Assembly (NCBI GenBank): GCA_024663395.1
Contig: JANFAH010000003.1
Coordinates: 3,658,001 to 3,722,000 of the forward strand
DNA length: 64,000 nt
Direction: 5' to 3'
Source of the DNA: Pisolithus tinctorius
Lineage: Eukaryota; Basidiomycota; Agaricomycetes; Boletales; Pisolithaceae
Below, in pieces: positions 9,397-10,667 of this stretch. The translations under genes were made by a program, and so were the position numbers. Position 1 is the first letter of the stretch. Each line of letters opens with the position of its first letter. The notes beneath the pieces are model-generated. The model saw only the letters and a program-made list of their open reading frames with translations. It was not told the origin of the DNA and made no database searches.

Positions 9397-10667
9397 ATGC
9401 CTTCCCAGCGCCAGAGCAACACCCCCCAGCCAACCCCCGGCCACGTTCGCGACTACTCCCAAGTCGCAGATGAAGAGCTGGTCGTCCTCACCGACGACTC
9501 CACCGACACCGAGCGAGAGAAGTCCGTGGAGAAGGTGCGCCGACGAGAGGAGGCCGAGCGGAGAGAGAGAGAGTGCGAGGCAGAGCACAAGGCCAAGTGC
9601 GAGGAGGCCAAGAGGTGGAAGGCGGAGGAGGAGCGGTTGGAGGCAGAGCGGAAGAAGAGAGCGGAAGAGGAGGCTCAGAGGAGAAGGGCGGCAGAGGAAG
9701 AGGAGGCTCAAAAGAAGAGGGCGGCAGAGGAAGAGGCGGAGAGGCAGAGGCAGAGAGCCTCTCAGGAGAGAGCCCAGGCCAGGAGGGACGAGGCCACGCA
9801 GAGGTGAGTAGCAGATTACTGCAAGCCAGGCGGAGCTGACCTATTATTTTTATTATTTTTTTGACCTTACTCTATTTCAGGTTGACCGGCATGGTGTACG
9901 ATGTCAACACTGCCCAGAAGGTGCCTGGGGCCTCTGTGGTGGTCACCGCGACCAGGCAGCCCCCCTGCACTCGCTGTGTAGTGAGTCTGATGGCGGGCCA
10001 GTGCGAGCCAGGACAAGGCAAGACCAGGGCCTGTGTGCCCTGCCATAACAAAAAGAAGACGTGCAGCTGGATGCAGGAAGAGGTGGTGGCGGGACCTTCG
10101 TGGAAGCGAGCTGGGACGGGGAGCTCCCGAGGAGAGAAGAAGAAGAGGACGCGGGGGAAGGGAAAGGAGAAAGCGACAGAGACAGAGGAAGCGGATGACG
10201 AGCAGGAGGTAGGTGGAGAGGACGAACCAGTGACCCCACTTGAGGGTCCCTCTGGTGCGAAAGTCCACACGCAGTGGGCAGAGTGGGAGCGGGAGTGGCA
10301 GCTGCAGGCCATGGAGAGACAGGCTGAAGTGCACGAGACCACTGCGCTGGCCTTTGAGAGGATGGCAGAGGCAGCAGAGCGGATGGCGGTGGCTGCAGAG
10401 CGGACAGCCGACGAGTGGGTGCTGTACCGCACCTGGGCAGAGTGGGCAGAGATGAGGAGGAGGGAGGATGCGCGAGAGGCCAGAATGGCTGAGCTCGAGC
10501 GCACAGGCGGAGGATGGAAGAGGCCTCAGTCGGAGGCGGGGGAGGACAAGAACGAGGAAGCGGACGAAGGTGCGGAGGGGGATAATGAGGAAGAGGAGGA
10601 AGTCGGAGGAGAGAAGGAAGGTAGAGAAGAACAGGAGGGTGACGGAGGACAAGCGATGGAAGAGTAG
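9397..10667 (+). CDS. Antisense spliced gene carried by B1: coiled-coil protein with Zn2Cys6-like cluster
   Basis: Two exons, 9397-9803 and 9881-10667, flank a 77-nt intron with donor GTGAGT, a CTGAC branch-like site and acceptor TTTCAG. Splicing (phase 2, joining AG|G as Arg136) gives one 397-codon frame, whereas the unspliced frame stops at once (TGA at 9805). ATG context is CATCACCATGC. Residues about 45-136 are a very charged Glu/Arg coiled coil. Cys 165, 168, 177, 187, 190 and 197 (C-x2-C-x8-C-x9-C-x2-C-x6-C, second half CVPCHNKKKTC) resemble a fungal Zn2Cys6 DNA-binding cluster with a widened first loop. A second helical segment (repeats of ERMAEAAERMA type) and an acidic tail follow. 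It lies between the pol stop and the polypurine tract, opposite in strand to pol. It is intact although pol is broken. A DNA-binding or regulatory role is inference, and I do not know a named family. Confidence 0.8.

What the first reader, a model, noticed from the sequence alone, without database searches (positions are those of the whole stretch)
9397..10667. Retrotransposon B1 carries an intact, spliced, antisense gene for a Zn2Cys6-like coiled-coil protein
Seen: between the pol stop (10871) and the polypurine tract (9204-9222) lies a two-exon ORF on the strand opposite to gag-pol. The 77-nt intron has good splice signals and only splicing gives a 397-codon frame. Six cysteines are spaced C-x2-C-x8-C-x9-C-x2-C-x6-C, near the fungal Zn2Cys6 pattern, between charged coiled coils. 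Known: antisense extra ORFs occur in some plant gypsy elements. Inference: B may encode its own DNA-binding regulator, or have captured a host transcription-factor-like gene. An intron can persist because the gene is antisense to the genomic RNA. It is intact while pol has three stops.
Basis: partly seen in the sequence, partly recalled or inferred. Interest (0 to 1): 0.88.

Follow-up and report, generated by a model that had tools for sequence, protein, structure and literature searches.

The report
Antisense intron-bearing gene in fungal retrotransposon
A family of jumping genes in a Pisolithus-like fungus carries an extra gene on its opposite strand, with its own intron and a likely zinc-binding protein that selection has preserved, so the element probably makes a regulator of its own; antisense extra genes are known in plant and Botrytis elements, but this one has unusual features.

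Summary
B1 is a Ty3/gypsy chromovirus carrying, between pol and the 3' LTR, an antisense two-exon gene (9397-9803 + 9881-10667, 397 codons). It is a family feature: 20 of 20 fetched copies and 30 of 30 loci picked by their pol end have it. The intron keeps spliceosomal signals: GTGAGT 37/37, GCTGAC 37/37, AG 35/37 loci. The protein is under purifying selection (pooled dN/dS 0.15; Cys6 region 0.05-0.08). Homologues were found only in five Pisolithus species, four with the Cys6 motif. Predicted folds match, at E <= 10, only PDB chains of Zn2Cys6 factors, each weakly; Pfam Zn_clus is not reached. New: the gene has its own history. Copies with nearly identical pol (dS 0.04) carry alleles at dS 0.65, so it is exchanged as a cassette. 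Best reading: an element-encoded nuclear zinc-cluster accessory protein, probably a regulator; transcription, splicing, DNA binding and role were not testable. Antisense accessory genes are known (brtn, gene23, Retand), so this is a new variant of a known kind.

The parts
15935..16648 (-). 5' LTR of B1 (714 nt, TGTC...GACA)
   Evidence: matches the LTRs of other copies; exact 5-nt target-site duplications in 14 of 18 copies with two LTRs in view
14587..15873 (-). gag (Ty3 capsid; zinc knuckle below Pfam cut-off)
   Evidence: Pfam PF19259, PF03732
10871..14533 (-). pol: protease, RT, RNase H, integrase, chromodomain; three in-frame stops
10668..10720 (.). T-rich tract just after the aORF stop (A-tract on the gag-pol strand)
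   Evidence: in 38 of 39 aligned loci, variable length; deleted in L015
9881..10667 (+). antisense gene, exon 2 (Cys6, basic motif, coiled coil, acidic tail)
9966..10064 (+). six-cysteine region C-x2-C-x8-C-x9-C-x2-C-x6-C
   Evidence: all six kept in 36 of 39 loci; lowest dN/dS of the protein; kept in other Pisolithus species; Zn2Cys6-like model
10104..10148 (+). basic motif KRAGTGSSRGEKKKR, like a bipartite nuclear-localisation signal (pattern recalled)
   Evidence: largely conserved between species
10251..10502 (+). predicted 84-residue helix, coiled-coil-like
   Evidence: AlphaFold2 pLDDT mostly above 90
9804..9880 (+). intron, 77 nt; branch-like GCTGAC at 9835-9840
   Evidence: GTGAGT 37/37, GCTGAC 37/37, AG 35/37 loci
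9397..9803 (+). antisense gene, exon 1 (N-terminal motif, first coiled coil)
9347..9354 (+). TATA-like TTAAAAAC 43-50 nt upstream of the ATG
   Evidence: invariant in 21 of 21 aligned copies
9254..9271 (.). dyad GATCAAC-ACGA-GTTGATC in the leader, a possible operator (inference)
   Evidence: arms intact in 19 of 21 copies
9204..9222 (-). polypurine tract next to the 3' LTR
   Evidence: C-run on the + strand in the aligned copies
9107..9203 (-). 3' LTR, first part (U3 tip, hypervariable)
1644..2269 (-). 3' LTR, rest, cut off by nested element A
   Evidence: 95.5% identical to 15935-16560

Best explanation
It is a genuine accessory gene of a chromovirus-type Ty3/gypsy retrotransposon family. Shown from sequence: it is present in every copy tested, antisense to gag-pol, interrupted by an intron with conserved spliceosomal signals, and under purifying selection as a protein. 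Also shown: its history is separate from that of gag-pol, because different alleles occur on nearly the same gag-pol. Inferred: it is transcribed from a short conserved promoter between the 3' LTR and its ATG, using integrated DNA as template. The intron survives because the packaged gag-pol-sense RNA presents it backwards. The product dimerises through coiled coils, enters the nucleus through its basic motif, folds a Gal4-like two-zinc cluster, and binds DNA or chromatin to control the element's own expression, silencing or integration. Selection acts on the element's success in transposing, not on the host.
For: 20 of 20 fetched copies and 30 of 30 pol-ascertained loci carry it; of the other 10 rows, 8 have an aORF match at the expected place. 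150 loci scored in the genome out of 408 candidates (capped). dN/dS 0.15 pooled over 10 pairs of 5 copies; differences by codon position 215/241/746; the five other frames all hold stops. Over 37 copies (666 pairs) dN/dS falls from 0.59 at dS <0.05 (9 pairs) to 0.17 at dS >0.5 (205 pairs), as expected if selection acts during transposition and copies decay afterwards. Copies with an intact aORF have more similar LTRs (one-sided Mann-Whitney p = 0.03, 5 against 12), as do copies with a long pol frame (p = 0.02, 9 against 8). Intron signals. TTAAAAAC 21/21 and ATG 21/21. Cys6 dN/dS 0.05-0.08; motif kept in P. microcarpus, P. albus and P. croceorrhizus. Every Foldseek match at E <= 10 is a Zn2Cys6 factor for both models (2 of 2; 9 of 9 chains; for entries other than PPR1 the class is recalled); chain 1cld (LAC9, recalled) 33 of 33 residues at 1.7 A.
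Confidence: 0.6

Rival explanations
1. Structural or trafficking accessory protein: the Cys6/coiled-coil protein acts on element RNA, particles or the preintegration complex (nuclear import, chaperoning), not on transcription.
For: Basic motif and zinc-ligand pattern would suit RNA binding (inference); PMC7264820 (parts 1-2 of 3 read) discusses nuclear import and accessory-factor roles for such genes.
Against: The predicted fold resembles DNA-binding clusters. An antisense gene is read from integrated DNA, which suits a regulator better than a particle part (inference).
Confidence: 0.22
2. A host Zn2Cys6-type gene was captured, with its intron, by DNA-level recombination in an ancestor and kept as cargo. 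This concerns origin and is compatible with a regulatory role now.
For: Zn2Cys6-like fold and spliceosomal-type intron are host-gene traits.
Against: Three protein searches found no homologue outside Pisolithus. They reach only relatives sharing exact 5-residue words, scored 83, 7,995 and 7,996 candidates, and give no genomic context, so a stand-alone host relative within Pisolithus could not be ruled out.
Confidence: 0.12
3. The antisense RNA, not the protein, matters (double-stranded RNA or silencing control), and the open frame is incidental.
For: Antisense transcripts are discussed as possible regulators of elements (PMC7264820).
Against: Frame-specific constraint: dN/dS 0.15, third-position excess, stops in the other frames, lowest dN/dS at the cysteines.
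Confidence: 0.04
4. The B1 copy is a domesticated host gene kept intact while pol decayed.
For: Its frame is open although pol has three stops.
Against: The gene sits in a damaged element with 203 of 283 C>T/G>A changes at CpG. Near-identical copies show dN/dS near 0.6, and intact aORF beside broken pol is one of several combinations seen.
Confidence: 0.02

Closest known systems
brtn, the antisense gene of Boty-like Ty3/gypsy elements in Botrytis cinerea (Zhao et al. 2011, Virology; not held, known from PMC7264820, PMC8365987, PMC4227169)
   Same: fungal gypsy element with CHROMO domain; extra gene antisense between pol and 3' LTR
   Different: brtn sequence and any intron could not be compared; ascomycete host; no zinc-cluster claim in the passages seen
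Plant aORF-3R genes: Grande gene23, RIRE2, Retand TRP28 (PMC7264820 parts 1-2 of 3, PMC11963269 passages)
   Same: [quoted passage not shown] Grande gene23 has its own promoter and a nuclear product
   Different: plant elements, Retand being a non-chromovirus lineage; TRP28 (PF04195) was not among the Pfam matches here; no zinc cluster or intron mentioned in what was seen
HTLV-1 HBZ (PMC5797633, PMC6237760: search listing and abstract starts only)
   Same: antisense, spliced and unspliced mRNAs, leucine-zipper protein of a retroelement, antagonises the virus's own activator Tax
   Different: animal retrovirus, bZIP domain; no homology claimed; a functional analogy only
Gal4-class Zn2Cys6 factors (PDB PPR1, PUT3, Pho7, GAL4, LEU3, LAC9; class of those other than PPR1 recalled)
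   Same: six cysteines, two short helices each starting at a C-x2-C in the model, coiled coil in the same protein; the only PDB matches of both models at E <= 10
   Different: spacing x8 in the first loop, Pfam cut-off not reached, encoded by a retrotransposon

Membership tests
Ty3/gypsy chromovirus | LTRs, gag, protease-RT-RNaseH-integrase order, chromodomain at the end of pol | tested here: met
   (PF19259, RVP_2, RVT_1, RT_RNaseH, rve, Chromo above cut-off)
[quoted passage not shown]
   20/20 and 30/30
antisense accessory gene between pol and 3' LTR (aORF-3R) | transcribed from its own promoter (shown for Grande gene23) | not testable with these tools
   only conserved TATA-like and ATG context seen
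homologue of brtn (Boty) | sequence similarity to BRTN | not tested
   BRTN sequence not at hand; paper not held
Retand TRP28 genes | PF04195 domain | tested here: not met
   not listed for the window protein or any of 23 family members at E <= 10 (HMMER's filters drop most matches above 0.1)
fungal Zn2Cys6 (PF00172) | C-x2-C-x6-C-x5-12-C-x2-C-x6-8-C (recalled) | tested here: not met
   first loop is x8 in B1 and in the complete motifs, except x7 in P0016; the rest fits. The count (33 of 103) used a pattern that demanded x8
fungal Zn2Cys6 (PF00172) | Pfam gathering score | tested here: not met
   best E = 1 in 5 of 23; no match for the window protein
fungal Zn2Cys6 (PF00172) | two-helix binuclear-cluster fold | tested here: inconclusive
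   [not shown]
fungal Zn2Cys6 (PF00172) | binds two zinc ions and DNA | not testable with these tools
   none

The most novel reading that the evidence does not exclude
The antisense gene is a specificity cassette. Co-resident elements encode different alleles of a Gal4-like zinc-cluster regulator and exchange them by recombination, exon by exon, while sharing one gag-pol. Each element would thereby regulate itself and its closest kin and ignore, or escape, others: an element-level self/non-self control.
Probability: 0.15. Interest if true: 0.85.

Novelty: new variant of a known kind. Interest (0 to 1): 0.68.

Why it matters
The function of antisense accessory genes in LTR retrotransposons is an open question. 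Here is a basidiomycete family with at least 150 scored gene loci in one genome, in which selection on the protein can be measured, conserved splice signals mark the coding strand, and a testable biochemical hypothesis (zinc cluster, DNA binding) follows. The allele swapping shows the gene evolving apart from gag-pol, which points to a role in regulation or conflict between elements. It also suggests that a set of Pisolithus 'hypothetical proteins' are retrotransposon genes.

Tried and rejected
Host capture as cDNA: rejected, because the intron region is present in 37 of 37 loci counted, the spliced-junction pattern has no match in the genome within 2 mismatches, and the gag-pol strand has an A-tract, not a T-tract, beside the gene. 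Locus C4:335820 looked intronless by frame length, but its sequence keeps intron-like letters without a GTGAGT. Co-evolution with the U3 tip: distances correlate only 0.24/0.28 with exon 1/exon 2, 0.63 with the adjacent leader and 0.50 with the pol end, so not supported. A second, P. microcarpus-like family in this genome: best identity 43% among 117 matches, no closer family (110 of 712 candidates scored). IMG/VR scan: five pattern matches, none confirmed. Rfam: nothing. Profile search of PDB sequences at E <= 10: ten matches, none a zinc-cluster factor by name. Paper searches for a retrotransposon-encoded Zn2Cys6 or a fungal spliced antisense gene: none in the listed rows beyond the papers cited; only top rows were seen and most subscription papers are not held. 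P. orientalis P0075 (201 aa) lacks the Cys6 part.

Left out before counts: L026 and L015 from the binned dN/dS; L017 and L018 from the intron count (part of intron deleted); L038, L049 and L054 from the region alignment (no exon 1); L018, L021, L025 and L026 from the full-length alignment, and L015 and L023 besides from the distance matrices and trees; L018 from the LTR test as a probable duplicate of L017, with B1, L021 and L026 not in it. Stop codons and gapped codons were left out of all dN/dS.

Full report
What is there. The window lies in a 92.5-Mb, 221-contig genome. B1 runs on the minus strand: 5' LTR 16648-15935, gag 15873-14587, pol 14533-10871, then on the plus strand the antisense gene 9397-10667, the polypurine tract, and a 3' LTR split by a nested, apparently younger element. 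Pfam finds Ty3 capsid, protease, RT, RNase H, integrase and a chromodomain, so the element is a chromovirus.

Removing 9804-9880 gives 397 codons. Five hundred dinucleotide shuffles of the stretch, each allowed one GTGAGT-AG intron, reached at most 335 stop-free codons.

The gene belongs to the family. I fetched the 20 best matches, other than B1, to the first 360 nt of exon 2, in 8.5-kb stretches. All 20 have exon 1 (partly deleted in L017 and L018), exon 2 and the leader next to an LTR, with pol beyond; pol is interrupted or set apart by insertions in L021, L025 and L026. Of 18 with two LTRs in view, 14 show exact 5-nt target duplications and two more differ by one base. Because that set was chosen by the gene, I also searched with the pol 3' end: 30 of 30 loci carry exon 2 sequence beside pol, 27 of them exon 1 too, three being truncated (nine of the 30 repeat places already seen, B1 included). 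Of the other 10 rows, 8 have a gene match at the expected distance; for two none is listed. A protein search scored 150 loci out of 408 candidates; some may be haplotype duplicates.

It is very probably spliced, and on that strand. Among 37 loci that retain the region, GTGAGT is kept in 37, a branch-like GCTGAC in 37 and the AG in 35, while intron length varies from 39 to 82 nt (alignment). A pattern of the spliced junction has no match in the genome within 2 mismatches. This is what an antisense gene predicts: the packaged RNA carries the intron backwards. Upstream, TTAAAAAC and the ATG are invariant in 21 of 21 copies, and a dyad GATCAAC-ACGA-GTTGATC has intact arms in 19 of 21; a promoter and an operator there are inferences. 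No transcript data could be seen.

It is selected as a protein. Besides B1, 6 of 20 copies have an intact spliced frame ending in the same tail (for L028 the script chose a nearer acceptor, five codons longer than with the homologous one). Pairwise dN/dS among the seven intact copies is 0.10-0.27 in 20 of 21 pairs and 0.75 in the near-identical pair L013-L014. Pooled over five copies it is 0.15, with differences by codon position of 215, 241 and 746, and all five other frames contain stops. Frame -1 also gives a low ratio (0.25), but with 67 stop cells. The Cys6 region is the most constrained of seven segments (0.05-0.08), and 36 of 39 loci keep all six cysteines. Over 666 pairs of 37 copies, dN/dS drops from 0.59 for near-identical pairs to 0.17 for distant ones: selection acts while elements are transposing and copies decay after insertion. 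The window copy shows such decay, 203 of 283 C>T/G>A differences being at CpG. So its open frame beside a broken pol is not a sign of host use.

A finding beyond the report. Over 15 copies, distances of gag, pol and most of the LTR agree with each other (r 0.69-0.91), but those of exon 1 and exon 2 hardly follow them (0.22-0.47) or each other (0.36). Two copies with pol dS 0.040 differ by dS 0.645 in the gene (L017, L024), while others are more alike in the gene than in pol (L027, L028: 0.007 against 0.054) (45 pairs of 10 copies). In windows the gene stands out at about twice the divergence of pol, and trees conflict with strong local support (L013 and L024 are sisters for pol at 0.957, yet lie on opposite sides of branches with support 1.000 for exon 1 and exon 2). 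The gene is therefore an exchanged module with old alleles, which bears on function. Its alleles do not follow the likewise variable U3 tip, so a simple cis-trans pairing there is not supported. The sample was chosen by similarity to B1, and more distant families may hold the donors.

What is known. Antisense genes between pol and the 3' LTR are described in plants (Grande gene23, with its own promoter and a nuclear product; RIRE2; Retand TRP28) and in the fungal chromodomain element Boty (brtn), with unknown function (PMC7264820 parts 1-2 of 3 read; PMC11963269 passages; PMC8365987 and PMC4227169 passages). Zhao 2011 and Gomez-Orte 2013 were not held. HTLV-1 HBZ is the best functional analogy (listing and abstract starts). 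Pisolithus genomes have up to 60% transposable elements (PMC10066745 passages). No report of this gene stood in the listed rows of my paper searches; only top rows were seen, and most subscription papers are missing from the library.

Verdict. A real, family-wide, intron-bearing, selected antisense gene of a Pisolithus-like chromovirus, encoding a Zn2Cys6-like coiled-coil protein. It is a new variant of a known kind, and its regulatory role is likely but unproven.

Noticed in passing
window 2269-9110: Element A (LTRs 2269-2720 and 8659-9110, 100% identical) is nested in the 3' LTR of B1; its pol ORF (6150-8621) runs about 360 residues past the chromodomain and ends in cysteine motifs that look like CCHC knuckles by eye, without a Pfam match at E <= 0.01.
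   Followed up: partly
window 9107-16648: B1 decays by CpG to TpG/CpA changes: 203 of 283 C>T/G>A differences from five young copies lie in CpG, which suggests methylation of the element.
   Followed up: partly
window 9107-9203 and the same place in L009-L028: The first 95 nt or so of the LTR (U3 tip) are a second hypervariable segment, with about three types among copies whose remaining LTR is mostly 90-95% alike.
   Followed up: partly
window 10668-10720 and copies: A T tract of variable length follows the antisense stop codon in 38 of 39 aligned loci; on the gag-pol strand it is an A-tract about 150 nt after pol.
   Followed up: no
L017, L018: The same target duplication CCCTT and the same deletion at the exon 1/intron border on contigs C189 and C14: probably one insertion held twice (haplotype or duplication).
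   Followed up: no
P0044 (Pisolithus tinctorius, 695 aa): A database protein joins an unrelated N-terminal part to an aORF-like C-terminal part lacking the cysteine region; probably a gene-model chimera.
   Followed up: no
window 57384-63806: Another retroelement-like stretch: an ORF with a sub-threshold DUF4100 match, followed by ORFs that look like RT and integrase by eye.
   Followed up: no
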